From Methanomicrobiales archaeon (GTDB lineage: Archaea > Halobacteriota > Methanomicrobia > Methanomicrobiales > Methanoculleaceae), in contig JAAZID010000335.1 of NCBI GenBank assembly GCA_012510295.1, positions 1 to 6,319 on the forward strand: a DNA stretch of 6,319 nucleotides. The letters are read 5' to 3'. A program made the position numbers and the translations under genes. Below are positions 56 to 6,319 of this stretch, in pieces. How positions within the stretch are numbered: the first letter of the stretch is position 1; each line of letters starts with the position of its first letter. Under the pieces are notes generated by a model. It saw only the letters and a program-made list of their open reading frames with translations. It searched no databases and was not told where the DNA came from.

Positions 56-233
56 CGAAGAAACAGGGGATCCCCGCTCGCTGGATCAGCCACCACATCG
101 GGTGGAATGCAAGGAGCATAACGCCGCCTGCGGCCTGAGGAGCGAACGACCGGGGTAAGTGAGGAAGATGGCTGGAAAAAGTATCGGTCGGGGATCCATT
201 GAACAAGAGAAAAACTCATCAGGAGAACGTGAC
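56..233 (+). other. Long 5' leader region before the first CapK-like gene
   Basis: No convincing gene is seen here. The stretch has a 10-bp palindrome, GGGGATCCCC, at 66-75 and a short GC-rich stem, GCCGC/GCGGC with a 2-nt loop, at 123-134. The reading frame of the downstream gene stays open upstream to a GTG at 159, with an ATG at 168. These extra codons have no counterpart in the neighbouring paralog, so they are treated as leader. I do not recognise a known riboswitch. Confidence 0.4.
221..226 (+). promoter_or_regulatory. Ribosome binding site deciding the CapK-1 start
   Basis: AGGAGA lies 7 nt before the ATG at 234. It is the reason for preferring this ATG over the upstream GTG (159) or ATG (168). 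The protein from 234 also lines up end to end with the N-terminus of the paralog that starts at 1676. Confidence 0.75.
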
Positions 234-1661
234 ATGATACGCCTGGGAGAGAGGATCTGTGGCAGAGGATCCTTCACTGCAAAGGCTCTCAGCATCCTCC
301 CCTCCTACAGTACCTATAGGAAAACCTACACCCTTCTCCAGGCCTCCCGATGGTGGAGCCGGGAGGAACTTTTAGCCTACCAGACAGAGGCGCTCTCGCG
401 CCTGCTCAACCATGCCTACACAAACGTCCCCTACTACCGCCGGATCTTCGATGACCGGGGGCTCGTACCAGAAGACATCCAGACCCCGGCAGACCTCCGG
501 CTCCTCCCGATCCTGACCCGGGAGGATCTGCAGACACACCTCCCCGATCTCAAGGCAAGAAACTACCCGGATGCTGCCTTTGAGTATGTCACCACCGGCG
601 GATCCACCGGGATCCCGGTCGGGTTCTACTACGAGCGGGGCGCCTCCCGGGCCCGGGAATGGGCGTTCATGAAGACCCAGTGGGACTGTGTCGGCTACCG
701 GTTTGGCGACAGGTGCGCCGTCCTCCGGGGTTATATCGTTGGATCCGCTCGCAACTCAGCATACTGGAAAAAGACCCTCTTCGGCCGGTGGTTGCTCATG
801 TCATCCCACCACATGACCGAGGAGACCCTGCCGGCCTACATCGATCAGATCCGGCGGTTTGAACCGAGATTCATCCAGTCATATCCCTCCACTGCAGCCC
901 AGCTCGCCCGTTATATGACCGAGAACGGGGTTGAGCCCTTCCCGACGGTGCGGGCGGTCCTCTGTGGCTCTGAGAACCTCTATCCCTGGCAGCGGATCCT
1001 CCTTGAGGAGGCGTTTTGTTGCCGGGTCTTCTCCTGGTACGGTAACTCAGAACAGACCGTGCTCGCCGGGGAGTGCGAGGAGAGCACACACTACCACATC
1101 TTCCCCGAGTACGGGGTGGTCGAGCTGATCAGCAGGGATGGCCGGCCGGTGGAAGAACCGGGCGAACTCGGGGAGGTCGTCGCCACCAACCTCACCAACT
1201 ACGTCTGCCCCCTCATCCGCTACCGGACGATGGACCTTGCAACCGTGGCACAGGGGCCCTGCACGTGCGGCAGGCACTACCCGCTACTTGAGCGCGTGGA
1301 GGGAAGGATCCAGGACTTCATCATAACCGGTAAGGGCGAGCTCCTCTCCGGTATCACCATGAACATCGATACCGACGCGTTCGACAACGTCAAACAGTTT
1401 CAGTTCTACCAGGAGGAGGTCGGGGAGGTTGTCCTGAACGTCGTAAAAAAGCCGACGTTCGGGGATGTGGATGCAGAATACCTCTACCAGGAGGTGAGTC
1501 GGAGTTGCGGCGACGACGTCACCGTCACCATCAGGTACGTTGACAACATCCCGCTCACCACCCGTGGCAAGTATCGCTACTTCGTCCAGAACCTGCCGGT
1601 ACACTTCGGGGAGAGAGAGATGACAAAGATTGAGTTCGGGACTTCAGATATGCCTGCGTGA
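234..1661 (+). CDS. CapK/PaaK-type adenylate-forming enzyme, copy 1
   Basis: A 475-residue protein of the phenylacetate-CoA ligase/CapK family (ANL superfamily). Members activate a carboxylic acid as its acyl-AMP and usually pass it to a thiol. Visible motifs are the ATP-binding loop TGGSTGIP (about 121-128), YGNSE (269-273), RYRTMD (329-334), CTCGR (343-347), the hinge segment EGRIQDF (356-362) and the C-terminal catalytic lysine in GKYRY (Lys446). Cys281 and His286 of ECEESTHYH, with Cys343 and Cys345, could form the zinc site reported in some PaaK relatives; this is inference. The N-terminal WSREELLAYQ and VPYYRRIF segments and SYPSTAAQLA are typical of CapK members in surface-polysaccharide loci, rather than true phenylacetate ligases or F390 synthetase. 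No signal peptide or membrane segment is seen, so it should be cytoplasmic. It is 14 bp upstream of a close paralog and probably co-transcribed. The acyl substrate is unknown. Confidence 0.88.
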   Translation: MIRLGERICGRGSFTAKALSILPSYSTYRKTYTLLQASRWWSREELLAYQTEALSRLLNHAYTNVPYYRRIFDDRGLVPEDIQTPADLRLLPILTREDLQTHLPDLKARNYPDAAFEYVTTGGSTGIPVGFYYERGASRAREWAFMKTQWDCVGYRFGDRCAVLRGYIVGSARNSAYWKKTLFGRWLLMSSHHMTEETLPAYIDQIRRFEPRFIQSYPSTAAQLARYMTENGVEPFPTVRAVLCGSENLYPWQRILLEEAFCCRVFSWYGNSEQTVLAGECEESTHYHIFPEYGVVELISRDGRPVEEPGELGEVVATNLTNYVCPLIRYRTMDLATVAQGPCTCGRHYPLLERVEGRIQDFIITGKGELLSGITMNIDTDAFDNVKQFQFYQEEVGEVVLNVVKKPTFGDVDAEYLYQEVSRSCGDDVTVTIRYVDNIPLTTRGKYRYFVQNLPVHFGEREMTKIEFGTSDMPA

Positions 1662-1665
1662 TCCC

Positions 1666-1669
1666 GGAG
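1666..1669 (+). promoter_or_regulatory. Ribosome binding site deciding the CapK-2 start
   Basis: GGAG lies 6 nt before the ATG at 1676, inside the 14-bp gap between the CapK genes. A GTG at 1658 overlapping the previous stop codon would add six residues. It has no good Shine-Dalgarno site, and its extra residues have no counterpart in copy 1. The ATG at 1676 is therefore preferred. Confidence 0.7.
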
Positions 1670-1675
1670 ACGTAT

Positions 1676-3082
1676 ATGAAAGCTGACCTGCTGAAATGGA
1701 TATCGGGGGTAAGTCCTCTCACCGTACAAGCACTCAGCCTGATACCCTCCTACCGCATCTACCGGGAGATGTACACGCTCCTCGGAGAGTCACAGTGGTG
1801 GAGCCGTGAAAAACTTCTGGCCTACCAGGCGGAGGCGCTCTCGCGCCTGCTCGACCACACCTATGCAAACGTTCCCTACTACCGCAGGGTATTCGACGAC
1901 CGGGGGCTCGTGCCGGGGGATATCGGAACCCCGGAAGATCTCCGGCTCCTCCCTTTCCTGACAAAAGAGATCGTTCAGACCCATCTCCCCGACCTCAAGG
2001 CGAGAAACTACCCGGAATCGGCGTTCGAGTACGTTCGTACGTCCGGTTCCACCGGTACGCCTATGGGGTTTTACTACGAGCGGGGGGTCTCCCGGGCCCG
2101 GGAATGGGCATTCATGAAGACCCAGTGGGACCGCGTCGGATACCGGTTTGGTGATAAATGTGTCGTCCTCCGGGGACATGTGGTGGACAGCGCATCGAGC
2201 GGCGTCTACTGGAAGCGGGAGCTCTTCGGCCGGTGGTTGATCATGTCTTCTCACCAGATGACCGAGGAGACCCTGCCGGCCTATATCGACCAGATCCGGC
2301 GGTTTGGGCCCCGGTTCATACACGCCTACCCCTCGACGGCCGTGATCCTGGCACGGTTCATGAAGGAACATGGGATCGAACCCTTCCCGACGGTGAAAGC
2401 GGCCCTCTGTGGATCCGAGAACCTCTACCCCTGGCAGCGGAATCTCCTCGAAGAGGCATTTTGCTGCCGGGTCTTCTCCTGGTACGGCAACTCCGAGCAG
2501 ACCATGCTCGCCGGGGAGTGCGAGGAGAGCACGCACTACCACATCTTCCCCGAGTACGGGGTGGTCGAGCTGATCGGCAGGGATGGGCAGCCGGTGGCAG
2601 GACCGGGCGAACTCGGCGAGGTCGTCGCCACCAACCTCACCAACTACGTCTGCCCTCTCATCCGCTACCGGACGCGGGATGTGGCGGTCGCCACAGCAGA
2701 GCGGTGCTCCTGCGGGAGGCAGTACCCCCTGCTTGAGAAGGTGGAGGGGAGGCTCCAGGAGTTCATCGTGACACGGAGCGGGCACCTGGTCTCCGTCACC
2801 CCCATCAACTATGAGTCGGGGGCTTTTGAGAATATCCGGCAGTTTCAGATGTACCAGGAGACGATGGGCGAACTCATCGTAAAGGTCGTCAGGAAGTCGA
2901 CTTACACCCGGGAAGATTCTCAGCAGCTCGCCAGGGAGCTCCGGTGGCAGCTCGGTGATGGCGTGGATGTGGAGGTCCGGTTTGTCGATGAGATCCCCCG
3001 CACAGAGGGCGGGAAGTTCCGGTACCTCATCCAGAAACTACCGATCGATATCGGGGATCTCTCGAGCAGTTATTCGATGTAG
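1676..3082 (+). CDS. CapK/PaaK-type adenylate-forming enzyme, copy 2
   Basis: A 468-residue paralog of the preceding gene with all the hallmarks of an active ATP-dependent acyl-activating enzyme. It has TSGSTGTP (122-129), YGNSE (270-274), RYRTRD (330-335), CSCGR (344-348), EGRLQEF (hinge, about 357-363) and the catalytic lysine in GGKFRYL (Lys447). The core is very similar to copy 1, with two exact DNA matches of 42 and 38 nt. The last 110 or so residues, which form the mobile C-terminal domain, are clearly more divergent. That suggests different acyl substrates or acceptors. Its last codons overlap the end of the convergent GNAT gene by 13 bp. Its tail (IPRTEG...LPI.IGDLS...SM) recurs in a broken copy at 5933-6043. 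It is likely the second gene of a two-gene operon. It is cytoplasmic by the absence of signal or membrane segments. Confidence 0.88.
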   Translation: MKADLLKWISGVSPLTVQALSLIPSYRIYREMYTLLGESQWWSREKLLAYQAEALSRLLDHTYANVPYYRRVFDDRGLVPGDIGTPEDLRLLPFLTKEIVQTHLPDLKARNYPESAFEYVRTSGSTGTPMGFYYERGVSRAREWAFMKTQWDRVGYRFGDKCVVLRGHVVDSASSGVYWKRELFGRWLIMSSHQMTEETLPAYIDQIRRFGPRFIHAYPSTAVILARFMKEHGIEPFPTVKAALCGSENLYPWQRNLLEEAFCCRVFSWYGNSEQTMLAGECEESTHYHIFPEYGVVELIGRDGQPVAGPGELGEVVATNLTNYVCPLIRYRTRDVAVATAERCSCGRQYPLLEKVEGRLQEFIVTRSGHLVSVTPINYESGAFENIRQFQMYQETMGELIVKVVRKSTYTREDSQQLARELRWQLGDGVDVEVRFVDEIPRTEGGKFRYLIQKLPIDIGDLSSSYSM

Positions 3083-4098
3083 GGGATCACCTTCTTCTTG
3101 ATCCAGGGCCTGTTGATGATATTACTGTAGGCCCATTCCGCCGCTTTCCCCACAATATCCGCTCTGCTCACCTCGACATGGATGGAGAGATCCGGGTTGT
3201 ACTTCGCCTTGTGCATATTCAGGTTCGGGTTGTTTGCACCCGTGTTCTCGAACTCCAGGAAACCTTTTTCCTTTGCATCTTTGAGCAGGAGCCACTGGAG
3301 GTACTCGTTTGCCGACGTGCCGTCGATCTTCGGGCCGCCGACCCAGAGGAGATATCGATTATACTCCTGGGTTGTGCCGATACCTTTGAGGTCGCCATCC
3401 CGGTCATAGAGGTGGTAGACACGGACCGATCCCGGATACGCCCGGAGGATATCCTCAAAGTAACCCTGGGCGACCATCGGGATATCCATATCCGGATGGC
3501 TGAACCGCTGGCGCACCGTCTCATAAAAGAGCGCGAGATCGTCTCCCTCCTCCAGGTAGTAACCGCTCTTCTCAAACTTCCGGAGGTTCGTCCGCAGCTT
3601 CGCGCTCAGGTTCTTCCACAGGGTCTCCAGGGGTGGGGTGAGGTCGACGGTATAGGAGTAGCTGATCCGGGCCTGGTAGCCGTCCCAGATGAAGTGGCGG
3701 ATATCATGGTAGTCGGGGGTGAGCTTTATCGAGAGGTAGTTCGGCGAGAGGTCGTCGATCACCTCCCGGAGTCCCTCAATGACCACCTGCAGTGTCGACT
3801 CCCTTTTGCTCTGCTTTGCTGTGGTGTAATCCCTGCTCATCACGATGCCCTGGTAGGGTATGACCGCCTGCATGGGCGGGGGGGAGAAGACGACAGAAAT
3901 ACCGCTTATTTCCTTGTGGAAGAACGGACAGACGGCGACGAGTTCTCTGCCCTTGTAGATCCCGCAGGGGAGAACCTTGTACCCGGTATACCGCTCCGTG
4001 ATCTTCAGGAAATCCCACTTATGAAAGAGGAGGCCGGACGGGCCGGCATCGATGAACGTATCCCAGAGATCCTTATCCGTGACAATATCTACTGACAA
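3070..4098 (-). CDS. FemAB-like GNAT acyltransferase, copy 1 (TTG start)
   Basis: A 342-residue protein resembling the FemAB-like branch of the GNAT fold (Acetyltransf_6 type). This family transfers acyl or aminoacyl groups to amines on peptidoglycan precursors or sugars. Visible features, numbered from the TTG start, are the basic helix segment LSAKLRTNLRKFEKSG (164-179), typical of the family, and the second GNAT half from VGGPKIDG through ANEYLQWLLLKDAKEKG to ENTGANNPNLNMHKAKYNPDL (253-304). An ATG at 4143 would add 15 residues. The TTG at 4098 is preferred because it follows GGGGAG by 8 nt. It also gives an N-terminus of the same length as the paralog up to the shared DKD.WD.FID motif, and it fits the TATA box at 4158-4165. 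No signal peptide or membrane segment is seen. It converges on the CapK pair and ends inside the last CapK codons. The acyl donor and acceptor are unknown. Confidence 0.85.
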   Translation of the reverse strand: MSVDIVTDKDLWDTFIDAGPSGLLFHKWDFLKITERYTGYKVLPCGIYKGRELVAVCPFFHKEISGISVVFSPPPMQAVIPYQGIVMSRDYTTAKQSKRESTLQVVIEGLREVIDDLSPNYLSIKLTPDYHDIRHFIWDGYQARISYSYTVDLTPPLETLWKNLSAKLRTNLRKFEKSGYYLEEGDDLALFYETVRQRFSHPDMDIPMVAQGYFEDILRAYPGSVRVYHLYDRDGDLKGIGTTQEYNRYLLWVGGPKIDGTSANEYLQWLLLKDAKEKGFLEFENTGANNPNLNMHKAKYNPDLSIHVEVSRADIVGKAAEWAYSNIINRPWIKKKVIPYIE

Positions 4099-4106
4099 AC
4101 TCTTCT

Positions 4107-4112
4107 CTCCCC
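4107..4112 (-). promoter_or_regulatory. Ribosome binding site supporting the TTG start
   Basis: On the - strand, GGGGAG lies 8 nt before TTG at 4098-4096. The alternative ATG at 4143 has only a weak AAGG-like site. This site therefore decides the start of the first GNAT gene. Confidence 0.6.
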
Positions 4113-4157
4113 GCTCTACTGGAGAGATCCAGCTTCCTCCCATTACCCGTAGCCTTC

Positions 4158-4165: not shown

Positions 4166-4517
4166 GTAGTGGTCGCTACCGGTCATGGGGGTAGCGGGCT
4201 CACCGCTCCGGGTATCCGGGACGCCTTCCAGCTGCCACATGGCAGGGGAGAGCAGGAGCCCGGGTTTTTCGGGAGAGAGGGGACACTACGTCCGGGGGAG
4301 GAGCGGGCACCTGCAAGAGAGGACCGGGGGTCTCTTCACCTGCGAGGCAGGGAGTATACCTTCCGGAGAGGGCGGGCCGGATTACCCTGCAAGCCCCCGC
4401 CATCCGGAGTACCCCTTTTGTGCATCAGACCCCCGTTATGGGACAATCAGGGTTGTCTAAGAGGGGTTGCTCACAGTCCCGGGGGTGTGGTGAGTCGCAC
4501 CCCGATGGAATAGATCG
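4166..4517. other. Non-coding G-rich gap between the two GNAT genes
   Basis: No gene is supported here. The + strand is strongly purine- and G-rich, with runs of three to five G at 4271-4273, 4279-4282, 4294-4298 and 4305-4307. Small hairpins are present: AGCGG/CCGCT at 4193-4207 and GACAA/TTGTC at 4442-4457. Open frames crossing the gap have no Shine-Dalgarno site and show unnatural composition. No clear remnant of a CapK or GNAT gene was found by eye. Confidence 0.5.
4482..4503 (-). terminator. Candidate stem-loop downstream of the second GNAT gene
   Basis: A perfect 6-bp GC-rich stem (GGGGTG pairing with CACCCC, 10-nt loop) lies 14 bp past the stop codon of the second GNAT gene. No T-tract follows, so it is not a classic archaeal terminator. 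It may protect the mRNA 3' end or be incidental. Confidence 0.25.
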
Positions 4518-5534
4518 TCAGATCCTGCCGGCCAGTATCAGCATCCTCTTCACGAAGGTGAGGTATGCCCACCCGGAGAGAGATCCGAGGATATCCTTCT
4601 TCTCTACCTCGAAATACATAACGAGATCCGGGTTGAACCGGGACTTGAAGAAGGCCAGATCCCGGTTGTTCGCTCCCATGTTCTCAAAAGCTGGGTAGCC
4701 TTCAGCCTTCGCACGCTGGATCAGGAGCCACTGGAGGTACTCGTTCCCGGCATGAAGCCCTTCAAGCCTGGGCGTCCCGAGCCAGAGCAGAAACCGCTTA
4801 TACTCCTGGGCCGCCACCACGCCGACGATCTCATCCCCGGCATCGTAGAGCGAATATACCCCGATCCGGTCAGGGTAGGTACGCACGAGGTCGTTGAGGT
4901 AATCACGCCTTATAGGCGGAATGTCGAGCGATGGATCCTGGTAGCGCTCGGTGATGAGGCGGTGGAGCGTGGATATATCGTTCGTCCTCTCCAGGCGGAG
5001 GCCGGCTTCTGCCTCTTTTTTGAGCTTATTCCGTAGCTTGTAGTGGAGAGAGGTCCATATCGCCTCAAGCGGTTGCTCAAGGTCAATTGTATAGGTATAC
5101 CTGGCTCTCGCCTCGCACCGCTCCCAGATGTAATGACGTATATCCCTAAACTCCGGTACGAAGGCGATCGAGATATAGTTCGGTGAGAGATCCTCGATCA
5201 CCCCCCCGATATCATCAGCGACCATCTGGAGCGTCGACTCTTTCTTGCTCTGCTTGAGCCCCGCAAAACCCCTGCTCATAACGCATCCGAGGTGAGGTAT
5301 CACGGTGAGCGGGGGCGGAGAGAAGACCGCGCTTACGCCGTACACTCGCCCATGGAAGAGCGGGAAGAGACATAAAAGCTCATCCCCCTTGTAAACGGCA
5401 TACGGGAGGAGCGTGCTCCCGGTATACTTCGCTGTCAGGTGCAGATAGTCCCATTTATGAAAGAGAAGTCCGGATGGACTCTCGTCGATAAAAGAATCCC
5501 ACGTGTCTTTGTCGTCGATCCGCACCGCCGTCAT
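4518..5534 (-). CDS. FemAB-like GNAT acyltransferase, copy 2
   Basis: A 338-residue paralog of the first GNAT gene, of the FemAB-like acyl/aminoacyl transferase type. Shared segments are DKDTWDSFIDESPSGLLFHKWD (8-29), FSPPP (71-75), KQSKKESTLQ (94-103), LSPNYISI (116-123) and the basic segment KLRNKLKKEAEAG (166-178). The C-terminal half runs from NEYLQWLL through ENMGANNRDLAFFKSRFNPDL (264-304). By eye well over half of the N-terminal third is identical to copy 1, and a 24-nt DNA match survives (3286-3309 versus 4722-4745). The ATG at 5534 is chosen because it fits the TATA box at 5580-5587, although the Shine-Dalgarno site (GGGA) is weak. It lacks the PYIE tail found in copy 1 and in the remnant at 6031. 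No signal peptide or membrane segment is visible. It probably works with one of the CapK-like ligases; this is inferred from location and duplication, not from a known pathway. Confidence 0.85.
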   Translation of the reverse strand: MTAVRIDDKDTWDSFIDESPSGLLFHKWDYLHLTAKYTGSTLLPYAVYKGDELLCLFPLFHGRVYGVSAVFSPPPLTVIPHLGCVMSRGFAGLKQSKKESTLQMVADDIGGVIEDLSPNYISIAFVPEFRDIRHYIWERCEARARYTYTIDLEQPLEAIWTSLHYKLRNKLKKEAEAGLRLERTNDISTLHRLITERYQDPSLDIPPIRRDYLNDLVRTYPDRIGVYSLYDAGDEIVGVVAAQEYKRFLLWLGTPRLEGLHAGNEYLQWLLIQRAKAEGYPAFENMGANNRDLAFFKSRFNPDLVMYFEVEKKDILGSLSGWAYLTFVKRMLILAGRI

Positions 5535-5579
5535 GATATCGTCCCGTCTGTTCGCGACCTCTGATCATCTCGTTTTGCT

Positions 5580-5587
5580 GTATAAAC
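5580..5587 (-). promoter_or_regulatory. TATA box and BRE of the second GNAT gene
   Basis: On the - strand GTTTATAC is preceded by the purine-rich AAAG, a plausible TFB recognition element. A start about 26 bp downstream gives a leader of roughly 20 nt before the ATG at 5534, which is a normal archaeal arrangement. Confidence 0.55.
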
Positions 5588-5627
5588 CTTTCTGTGGGAT
5601 GACCGGGTGAAGCGGGGCGGCCTTGCA

Positions 5628-5646
5628 GACCGGGATTACCCCGGTC
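5628..5646. promoter_or_regulatory. Inverted repeat between divergent promoters, candidate operator
   Basis: GACCGGG and CCCGGTC form a perfect 7-bp inverted repeat around ATTAC. A further direct copy of GACCGGG lies at 5601-5607. The repeat sits between the - strand TATA box at 5580-5587 and a + strand TATA box at 5661-5668. That is where a dimeric regulator could block either promoter. It could equally be an RNA hairpin. No regulator gene is in the window. Confidence 0.4.
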
Positions 5647-5660
5647 ACTGGAGCCCAACC

Positions 5661-5690: not shown

Positions 5691-5882
5691 ATGGTCGCAC
5701 TCCGTCTCCTTGCTGTGGATGATATCTCGTATCAATCATGGGAGTGCAGTCACCTGGAGGCATACGGTGATATCTGGGTGGTGTTTACGGAGAAAAACCT
5801 CCTTTCAGAGTTCCTGCAACACTTTTATCACACATCAGGCCAGGATCTGGTCTCCATGCCGTATTCTGAGAATTTTTTCTAG
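5691..5882 (+). CDS. Possible small protein, 63 residues, doubtful
   Basis: The frame begins MVALRLLAVDD and ends SMPYSENFF. It has both a TATA box (5661-5668) and a good Shine-Dalgarno site (GAGGTGA, 5680-5686), which argues for expression. Against it, its last two thirds belong to a diverged direct repeat whose other copy (6128-6277) is broken by a 1-nt shift and stop codons. Differences between the copies also fall evenly on all three codon positions, so I see no sign of protein-level selection. No known domain, signal peptide or membrane segment is recognised. It is most likely a fortuitous frame or the end of a degraded gene. Confidence 0.25.
   Translation: MVALRLLAVDDISYQSWECSHLEAYGDIWVVFTEKNLLSEFLQHFYHTSGQDLVSMPYSENFF
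5730..5882 (+). repeat. Diverged direct repeat, copy A
   Basis: This stretch matches 6128-6277 at about two thirds of positions by eye, the core being 5766-5870 against 6160-6265. Best-kept blocks include GGTGATA at the start, CCAGGATC in the middle and TCTGAG near the end. Copy A is open on the + strand in the 63-codon frame. It flanks the decayed CapK/GNAT junction on the left. Confidence 0.65.
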
Positions 5883-5932
5883 GGCACTCCCTGTTCCCCG
5901 GATGACTGATCATCTGCGGTTTCACCGGCACT

Positions 5933-6043
5933 CATATCCGCTTCATCGATGCGATCCCGCGCACCGAAGGCGACAGGTTCAGGTAACCCATCCGGTATCT
6001 CCCGATCACGATCGGAGACCTCTCGACGGATCACTCAATGTAA
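5933..6043 (+). pseudogene. 3' remnant of a third CapK-like gene
   Basis: The translation matches the C-terminal tail of CapK copy 2. From the arginine at 5939, 22 of 34 positions are identical, including IPRTEG, LPI.IGDLS and the final SM before the stop. A TAA at 5984-5986 replaces a tyrosine codon in mid-tail with no change in length, so this is an in-frame nonsense mutation. The catalytic lysine of the GGK motif is Arg here (GDR). Nothing clearly homologous to the rest of the gene lies upstream; about 430 codons are missing. The gene cannot be functional. It ends 13 bp inside the convergent GNAT remnant, exactly as in the intact pair. Confidence 0.85.
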
Positions 6044-6273
6044 GGGGCGATCCGGTGCCTCAACCGGGGTGTGCCGGCGATATACGACGTATACCAGAAT
6101 GCATGAGGCAGAGAGAGGTCATCCTTTGCCACCACCATGGGCAGGCACCCTGCAGGTGTGGTGATACCCCGGTGATCATCACCAAAAAACAACCTCTTTC
6201 CTGATTGCCTGAAACACTTCAACCGTGTATCCAGCCAGGATCGGGTCGTCTTCCCATGCTCTGAGAGTTCCAC
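6031..6273 (-). pseudogene. 3' remnant of a third GNAT acyltransferase
   Basis: The - strand frame ends in APYIE followed by a stop and aligns with the last 35 residues of GNAT copy 1, which end VIPYIE. Eleven identities include a central Trp, an Asp and the PYIE end, and several Lys/Arg and Ile/Leu/Val exchanges are conservative. The match is good for about 6031-6138. Upstream to the GTG at 6273 the frame stays open and shows only faint similarity, such as an LK...G spacing. The catalytic core is absent, so it cannot be active. Together with the CapK remnant it forms a degraded copy of the convergent junction at 3070-3082. Confidence 0.7.
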
Positions 6274-6277
6274 CTGA
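6128..6277 (+). repeat. Diverged direct repeat, copy B
   Basis: This is the partner of 5730-5882, offset by 394-395 bp, with a 3-nt deletion near 6142 and a 1-nt insertion near 6190 relative to copy A. The insertion breaks the + strand frame, which is open in copy A. Its left end overlaps the upstream part of the GNAT remnant. TGACCGGGTG at 6275-6284 also occurs at 5600-5609 near the candidate operator. Confidence 0.65.
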
Positions 6278-6319
6278 CCGGGTGTGATCTCCCGGGGTAC
6301 CTGCCATTCTCCCCTGGGG

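What the first reader, a model, noticed from the sequence alone, without database searches (positions are those of the whole stretch)
5933..6273. A dying third copy of the convergent CapK/GNAT junction, with the 13-bp overlap preserved
The + strand remnant (5933-6043) matches the CapK-2 tail, and the - strand remnant (ending at 6031) matches the GNAT-1 tail. Both pairs overlap by exactly 13 bp at their stop codons (3070-3082 and 6031-6043). The ligase and transferase ends were therefore duplicated as one physical unit. A nonsense codon at 5984 and loss of the catalytic lysine show decay. This is the strongest evidence in the window that the two families move and evolve as a pair.
Basis: seen in the sequence. 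Interest (0 to 1): 0.75.

Follow-up and report, generated by a model that had tools for sequence, protein, structure and literature searches.

The report
Dead leftover of a borrowed gene junction
In a methane-making archaeon, a dead scrap inside a gene cluster matches another lineage's version of that cluster better than its own, so it was likely brought in by recombination and then decayed, while a sister species still carries a full-length open version of the decayed transferase gene at the same spot.

Summary
5933-6043 is a decayed CapK tail, it converges on a decayed GNAT tail, and the two stops overlap by 13 bp, as at 3070-3082. The interpretation needs correcting. The remnant is not a copy of the window's own CapK-2/GNAT-1 junction: among 29 junctions from 28 genomes its best match is the intact CapK2/GNAT-A junction of genome G022 (123/149 identities), and the window's own junction ranks 27th. 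GNAT-A is a third paralogue, full-length beside CapK2 in 17 of 28 genomes and missing there in the window; GNAT-1 is the next paralogue along (GNAT-B). The minus-strand "GNAT ORF" is a composite: only 6031-6138 is GNAT; the rest is antisense to a dead second copy of the small gene at 5691-5882. Sister genome G023 has the same joint, and there GNAT-A is an open full-length gene. GNAT-A of G023, and CapK3 on a contig that probably continues the window, are too close to G022 for the species distance. Best reading: recombination with another Methanoculleus lineage, likely a crossover between CapK paralogues, duplicated the GNAT/small-gene block, and the copies eroded differently in the two species. 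In passing: CapK1 and CapK3 show domain-limited concerted evolution.

The parts
159..1661 (+). CapK1, PaaK/CapK-type AMP-forming ligase (homologous part from about 255)
1658..3082 (+). CapK2, PaaK/CapK-type AMP-forming ligase; groups with G023, G021, G002 (native)
3070..4143 (-).
3070..3082 (.). 13-bp stop-to-stop overlap of CapK2 and GNAT-B
   Evidence: sequence
4518..5534 (-).
5691..5882 (+). 63-aa small ORF, conserved before CapK3 in relatives; native copy
5883..5932 (.). about 50 nt of probably native spacer that follows the small ORF (weak match to G002: 2 of 500 shuffles reach its score); the joint to G022-like sequence lies near 5932
5933..6043 (+). dead CapK2-type 3' tail (36 codons and stop; inner TAA at 5984, GK changed to DR, terminal TAA 6041-6043); nearest relative G022
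6031..6138 (-). dead GNAT-A 3' tail, 35 codons plus TGA, ungapped match to GNAT-A of G022 and G023 (16 of 35 identical to each)
6031..6043 (.). 13-bp stop-to-stop overlap in the remnant, as in the intact G022 CapK2/GNAT-A junction
6139..6277 (+). decayed second copy of the small ORF (aligned part 6141-6269), stop TGA 6275-6277; start missing
6196..6319 (.). end of contig, 95% identical to the end of contig C274 of the same assembly, which goes on to CapK3, a CapA-type gene and a TPP enzyme

Best explanation
The stretch 5933-6277 is a dead leftover of a second CapK2/GNAT-A junction and of a second copy of the small gene, and it likely entered by recombination with another Methanoculleus lineage rather than by copying the window's own CapK2/GNAT-B junction. 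Shown: relatives carry CapK1> CapK2> <GNAT-A <GNAT-B <GNAT-C small ORF> CapK3>, with some GNATs lost in many; the window has no GNAT-A next to CapK2; after its small ORF, where CapK3 begins in relatives, it has a CapK2-type tail, a GNAT-A tail and a decayed second small ORF; sister genome G023 has the same joint with GNAT-A still an open full-length gene; these pieces are closest to G022, a more distant species. Inferred mechanism: the CapK genes are direct repeats that exchange sequence, and a crossover between the native CapK3 and the CapK2 of an incoming chromosome piece would put a hybrid CapK gene followed by GNAT-A, GNAT-C, small ORF and CapK3 behind the native small ORF, duplicating the block. 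Inferred afterwards: the hybrid CapK was deleted down to its last 36 codons before the window and G023 parted (both carry GK changed to DR); G023 then kept the incoming GNAT-A and lost the native GNAT-C, while the window kept the native GNAT-C and lost all but the end of the incoming GNAT-A. The remnant itself would do nothing now. The confidence given is for the import by either joint; the crossover alone is put at about 0.45.
For: Gene order in 28 in-genus loci. Remnant against 29 junctions: G022 first (123/149, score 168), own junction 27th (82/111, score 73). Junction tree of 25 sequences: G022A with both remnants, support 100; own junctions of window and G023 with G021, support 97. Species tree of 20 genomes puts G022 with G008 and G013 (100), apart from window + G023. 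Path lengths: window or G023 to G022 is 0.33-0.34 in ribosomal-operon genes and 0.45 in CapK2, but 0.168 in GNAT-A (G023) and 0.191 in CapK3 (C274). AU tests reject a native place for CapK3 of C274 (p 3e-5 for one native grouping, far lower for the other) and for G023 GNAT-A (p 3e-29, 3e-4), and reject a G022-like place for CapK2 (p 1.5e-9). The C274 CapK3 core goes with the two G022 copies, not with the window's CapK1, although CapK1 and CapK3 cores are nearest neighbours within the genome in 12 of 13 genomes; the latter also shows that CapK paralogues of this locus exchange sequence. In 14 of 14 relatives measured, the aligned part of CapK3 starts 123-165 nt after the small ORF, the place now held by the CapK tail. 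GNAT-A of G023 is an open ORF of 343 aa.
Against: G022's own GNAT-A does not sit with its species clade either (AU p 3e-28), so G022 may be a fellow recipient, not the donor. G023's GNAT-C cannot be placed: grouping with window + G002 p 0.13, with G022 and the G008 clade p 0.35, and as sister of G022 alone rejected (p 0.002). No genome shows the hybrid CapK intermediate (28 loci). The native origin of 5883-5932 rests on a weak match (2 of 500 shuffles as good). The link window-C274 is a 124-bp overlap at 95%, not identity, so C274 could be a sister strain or misbinned. The contigs of window, G023 and G022 are from draft genomes. By protein alone the GNAT tail is not decisive: GNAT-B of G028 scores 64 against 69 for GNAT-A of G022. 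In the DNA ranking G023's second site is only 7th, because it has decayed on its own.
Confidence: 0.72

Rival explanations
1. Same import, different joint: the incoming piece was anchored by homology in CapK3/capA and its other end was joined end to end just behind the native small ORF (homology-facilitated illegitimate recombination), so no hybrid CapK gene ever existed. (This share is part of the 0.72 given to import.)
For: The joint at about 5932 has no clear homology on its two sides; this mechanism is described for bacteria and was proposed for displaced Vibrio gene arrays (PMC5361080, passages read).
Against: The CapK tail sits where CapK3 should start, which a CapK by CapK crossover predicts and this does not; the CapK genes of this locus exchange sequence.
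Confidence: 0.3
2. One reading: the remnant is an in-genome copy of the CapK2/GNAT-1 ends, decayed after a tandem duplication.
For: Real homology and the same 13-bp overlap.
Against: Own junction is 27th of 29 matches and on a different, well supported branch; the GNAT tail carries IAGT, found in GNAT-A of G022 and G023 and in none of the 17 GNAT-B tails printed.
Confidence: 0.06
3. Old duplication before the genus spread, with each lineage keeping a different copy (hidden paralogy), no transfer between species.
For: Explains why G022 and G023 share a GNAT-A type that sits outside the others.
Against: G022-G023 GNAT-A distance 0.168 is about half the ribosomal distance 0.331 and far under CapK2 0.453; CapK3 is incongruent in the same direction.
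Confidence: 0.12
4. Assembly chimaera or misbinning of a repetitive locus.
For: The window is a whole contig of a 451-contig draft and ends inside the locus; several draft contigs end in CapK genes.
Against: G023, a different genome (CapK2 95% identical), shows the same joint inside a 35.6-kb contig, with shared decay (GK to DR) and its own extra changes.
Confidence: 0.05

Closest known systems
Displaced gene arrays formed by incoming modules (Vibrio immunity-gene arrays; Rhs 3' ends), PMC5361080, passages read
   Same: An incoming homologous module is joined into a cluster and old genes or 3' ends are left as a record.
   Different: There old genes are pushed behind the new module; here the foreign part lies behind the native part, the anchor is likely a repeated ligase gene, and the genes are not toxin/immunity pairs.
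Merodiploids by unequal exchange with incoming DNA at repeats (Streptococcus pneumoniae), PMC3784515, passages read
   Same: A repeat shared by incoming DNA and chromosome pairs out of register and the block between repeats is duplicated.
   Different: Shown there by experiment in a bacterium; here inferred from fossils in an archaeon, between species, followed by decay.
Domain-limited concerted evolution of mtrA-1/mtrA-2 in Methanomicrobiales, PMC4632066, passages read
   Same: In the same order of archaea, one domain of two neighbouring paralogues is homogenised and another stays distinct; this is the pattern of CapK1/CapK3.
   Different: Different gene family; mtrA-2 gained a new membrane domain by fusion, whereas CapK1 and CapK3 keep a diverged ligase C-terminus.
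FemX/FemA aminoacyl transferases
   Same: The GNAT-B model (mean pLDDT 83) has FemX, PDB 6snr and 1ne9, as nearest solved folds (E 1.4e-14 and 1.5e-13, TM 0.65-0.66); Pfam Acetyltransf_6.
   Different: 12-13% sequence identity; no solved relative by sequence; substrate unknown.
PaaK/CapK AMP-forming ligases
   Same: CapK2 matches phenylacetate-CoA ligases (4r1l, E 6.5e-35).
   Different: Below the cut-off of each of the 11 NCBIfam families listed for it; substrate unknown.

Membership tests
   27th of 29 by score; separate branch
Convergent CapK/GNAT junction, dead | Both tails in convergent frames with stops overlapping | tested here: met
   13 bp overlap, both frames
Between-lineage import | Tree of the pieces conflicts with the species tree | tested here: met
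   AU tests for GNAT-A of G023 and CapK3 of C274 against species tree; GNAT-C of G023 inconclusive
Between-lineage import | Divergence to the other lineage is lower than for native genes | tested here: met
   0.168 and 0.191 against 0.33-0.45
Between-lineage import | Donor identified | tested here: inconclusive
   G022 is nearest, but its GNAT-A is itself out of place
Unequal crossover at CapK repeats | Hybrid CapK gene or its remains at the duplication joint | tested here: inconclusive
   Only a CapK2-type tail remains, at the CapK3 position; no full hybrid in 28 loci
Homology-facilitated illegitimate recombination | One homologous end, one joint without homology | tested here: inconclusive
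   Joint near 5932 without clear homology; the other end is off the contig
FemAB/FemX-like transferase (GNAT-B) | FemX is the nearest solved fold | tested here: met
FemAB/FemX-like transferase (GNAT-B) | Transfers an aminoacyl group from tRNA | not testable with these tools
   needs biochemistry
Domain-limited concerted evolution (CapK1/CapK3) | Core tree groups paralogues by genome, C-terminal tree by paralogue | tested here: met
   own CapK3 is nearest to CapK1 in 12 of 13 genomes for the core, 0 of 13 for the C-terminal part

The most novel reading that the evidence does not exclude
The cluster is a self-renewing recombination platform: gene conversion keeps the cores of the CapK ligases alike, the alike cores let chromosomes of different Methanoculleus species cross over out of register, and each event swaps, doubles or deletes the FemX-like transferases between them, so that the array of transferases is reshuffled between species while the ligases stay; the remnant at 5933-6277 is one frozen frame of that process.
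Probability: 0.35. Interest if true: 0.65.

Novelty: new member of a known kind. Interest (0 to 1): 0.42.

Why it matters
It corrects a plausible by-eye reading (an in-genome copy) to a different history (an introduced version that failed), and shows how one duplication left different genes in two sister species. If the CapK-anchored exchange is real, this cluster offers a traceable example of between-species module shuffling in a methanogen, driven by conserved paralogues rather than by a mobile element. It also warns that draft assemblies can break at exactly these genes.

Tried and rejected
Simple self-duplication of CapK2/GNAT-B: rejected by rank and tree. Reading 6031-6273 as one GNAT remnant: rejected, since the part beyond about 6138 aligns to the small ORF on the other strand. 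The 13-bp overlap as a sign of common descent with the own junction: rejected as evidence, because it is found with GNAT-A in G022 and G010 too. Mosaic origin of the window's GNAT-C: not seen; of 15 sliding windows against seven genomes G002 is highest in 14, and G020 is 0.02 higher in one. Protein-only assignment of the GNAT tail: not decisive. Literature, by listing only unless said: CapK with FemAB gave 1 paper, on a purple bacterium; FemAB, phenylacetate-CoA ligase and archaea gave 0; Methanoculleus with transfer, capsule, recombination, mosaic or exopolysaccharide terms gave 6, 3 and 6 papers, none with a title on this locus; overlapping genes by stop loss gave 1 on a mitochondrion-related genome; reciprocal loss gave 4, none on this by title. 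Not made: searches of viral, metagenome, phage, plasmid or E. coli collections, Rfam, PHROGs and PADLOC.

Full report
What was checked. The window is the whole of contig C254 (6319 bases) of a draft genome with 451 contigs, 80% complete. Its genus includes Methanoculleus sediminis: contig G013:C8 has the length of NZ_JXOJ01000002.1 and the same kind of match. The claimed homologies are real: DNA 5937-6046 to 2976-3085 scores 73 against a maximum of 37 in 500 dinucleotide shuffles, and a protein search with CapK2 finds the remnant at E 2.5e-7. The overlap of 13 bp, the TAA at 5984 and the loss of the invariant lysine are as described. That this lysine is the catalytic lysine of AMP-forming ligases is recalled, not tested.

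The + strand around the small ORF 5691-5882 recurs at 6141-6269 (score 47, shuffle maximum 30 of 500). The small ORF is found in 29 of 40 family genomes (E up to 1), and the aligned part of CapK3 starts 123-165 nt after it in 14 of 14 relatives measured. So the minus-strand ORF 6031-6273 is a composite: GNAT tail to about 6138, then antisense of a dead small ORF.

Gene order in relatives. 28 in-genus genomes (window included) have a contig with CapK2 of this type. Thirteen of them hold everything from CapK1 to CapK3 on one contig; many others are cut by contig ends. Pooled, the order is CapK1> CapK2> <GNAT-A <GNAT-B <GNAT-C small ORF> CapK3>. GNAT-A gives a full-length match beside CapK2 in 17 of 28 and a partial one in 2; A, B and C are all full-length in that order in 7 of 28, with two more where one of them is incomplete. 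After CapK3, contig C274 carries a CapA-type protein (PGA_cap, E 5.9e-60) and a TPP enzyme. The window's GNAT-1 is GNAT-B, its second GNAT is GNAT-C; a search of the whole draft finds only these two. Outside the family, the GNAT relatives in L020-L023 (Methanolobus, Thermosipho) show no CapK hit at E 1e-4 in the flanks held, while one Euryarchaeota locus has a 30% CapK beside it (L024).

Whose junction is the remnant? Compared with 29 junctions (28 genomes, G023 twice), the remnant is closest to the intact CapK2/GNAT-A junction of G022 (123 of 149); the window's own junction is 27th. A tree of 25 junction sequences puts the window remnant and the G023 remnant together (84) with G022 (100), and the own junctions of window and G023 (98) with G021 (97). 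The translated tail reads HIRFIDAIPRT and ends STDHSM, as in G022 (HIRFVDAIPRT, STDHSM); the window's own CapK2 reads VRFVDEIPRT and SSSYSM. The GNAT tail has the IAGT stretch of GNAT-A in G022 and G023, absent from the 17 GNAT-B tails printed. By ungapped protein score it is 69 and 66 to those two, 49 to the window's GNAT-B, but also 64 to GNAT-B of G028 and 63 to GNAT-A of G008, so the DNA comparison carries the weight.

The sister genome. G023 (contig of the length of JAAYND010000017.1, MAG AS21ysBPME_11) has CapK1> CapK2> <GNAT-B small ORF> CapK tail remnant <GNAT-A <GNAT-C, then a decayed small ORF, with GNAT-A an open ORF of 343 aa. Both remnants read DR where intact CapKs read GK, so the CapK tail was likely dead before the two species parted. 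Between GNAT-B and its small ORF, G023 lacks the native GNAT-C that the window has (window 4376-5650 has no counterpart between 11970 and 12019 of L148). G023 shows no CapK3 hit in the 679 bases after its decayed small ORF, where the contig ends.

Native and foreign parts. A tree from 11 ribosomal-operon ORFs in 20 genomes places the window with G023 (100), near G021, G002, G024 and G030, and G022 with G008 and G013 (100). CapK1, CapK2, GNAT-B, GNAT-C and the small ORF of the window group with this neighbourhood, and a G022-like place for CapK2 is rejected (AU 1.5e-9). GNAT-A of G023 groups with G022 (100) and a native place is rejected (AU 3e-29 and 3e-4); CapK3 on C274 groups with G022 and a native place is rejected (AU 3e-5 or lower). 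Distances to G022 are 0.168 and 0.191 for these two, against 0.33-0.34 for ribosomal genes and 0.45 for CapK2. This argues for exchange between species and against an old shared duplication. Against a simple donor story: GNAT-A of G022 does not fit G022's own clade either (AU 3e-28), and GNAT-C of G023 stays unplaced, with a sister place to G022 alone rejected (p 0.002).

The contig end. Window 6196-6319 is 95% identical to the end of C274 (124 bp). C274 is then 84.6% identical to G022 over 3150 bp and 76.5% to G002 over 2534. If C274 continues the window, CapK3 of this genome is foreign. If it is a sister strain or misbinned, the conclusion rests on G023, where the joint and GNAT-A lie in one contig, and on the remnant's own similarity.

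Concerted evolution of the ligases. In 10 of 12 genomes compared, CapK1 and CapK3 of one genome are mostly above 90% identical between about 75 and 900 nt and about 60% in the last quarter; G003 and G035 are lower in the core. In a tree of the core, CapK1's nearest neighbour is its own CapK3 in 12 of 13 genomes (G035 is the exception); in a tree of the C-terminal part, in 0 of 13. The C274 CapK3 core goes with both G022 copies, not with the window's CapK1, and the two are 69-89% identical over most of the core. So CapK genes in this locus exchange sequence regularly. Domain-limited concerted evolution is in print for mtrA in the same order (PMC4632066, passages); the survey PMC6053082 has no occurrence of 'ligase' or 'phenylacetate' in its main text.

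How it likely came about. The CapK tail stands where CapK3 starts in the 14 measured relatives. A crossover between the native CapK3 and an incoming CapK2, both in the same direction, would give native small ORF, hybrid CapK, GNAT-A, GNAT-C, small ORF, CapK3, which is the order found in G023 minus the hybrid's body and CapK3. This step is inferred; no hybrid was seen in 28 loci. The rival is a direct end joint, as in homology-facilitated illegitimate recombination (PMC5361080, passages); duplication by unequal exchange with incoming DNA is known in pneumococcus (PMC3784515, passages). Differential decay followed: G023 kept the incoming GNAT-A, the window kept the native GNAT-C.

What the intact genes may do. 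CapK2 matches PaaK ligases; the GNAT-B model is nearest FemX and FemA, which add amino acids to cell-wall precursors (recalled). With a CapA-type gene next to CapK3 a role in a cell-surface polymer is possible but untested. The remnant itself is unlikely to encode anything that is made.

Verdict. Observation confirmed; interpretation partly supported. The finding is a well documented but small piece of genome history, of a known kind.

Noticed in passing
CapK1 159-1661 against CapK3 (L057:2082-3410 and relatives): Domain-limited concerted evolution: CapK1's core is nearest to its own genome's CapK3 in 12 of 13 genomes, its C-terminal quarter in 0 of 13.
   Followed up: yes
window 5691-5882: A 63-aa protein family without a Pfam match over cut-off or an NCBIfam match, in 29 of 40 family genomes, with only 8 hits in a search of 5.8 billion proteins, those with organism names being Methanoculleus or Methanomicrobiales.
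   Followed up: partly
window 159-1661 and 1658-3082, about 750-975 nt into the aligned genes: CapK1 and CapK2 share a patch of 91-93% identity in a 53-84% background, which looks like a conversion tract.
   Followed up: no
L129 4521-4655 (G003), L143, L152: Other genomes keep dead or shortened GNAT-A pieces beside CapK2, so decay of GNAT-A is recurrent in the genus.
   Followed up: partly
L136 (G010) CapK2/GNAT-A junction: Its 13-bp overlap has a different CapK end (GDLYSM) from those of the window, G023, G021 and G022, so the overlap length seems to have arisen more than once.
   Followed up: no
draft contigs of G005, G010, G015, G020, G027: Pairs of contigs end at the same CapK residue in two different copies, as expected if the CapK1 and CapK3 cores are too alike for the assembler.
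   Followed up: no
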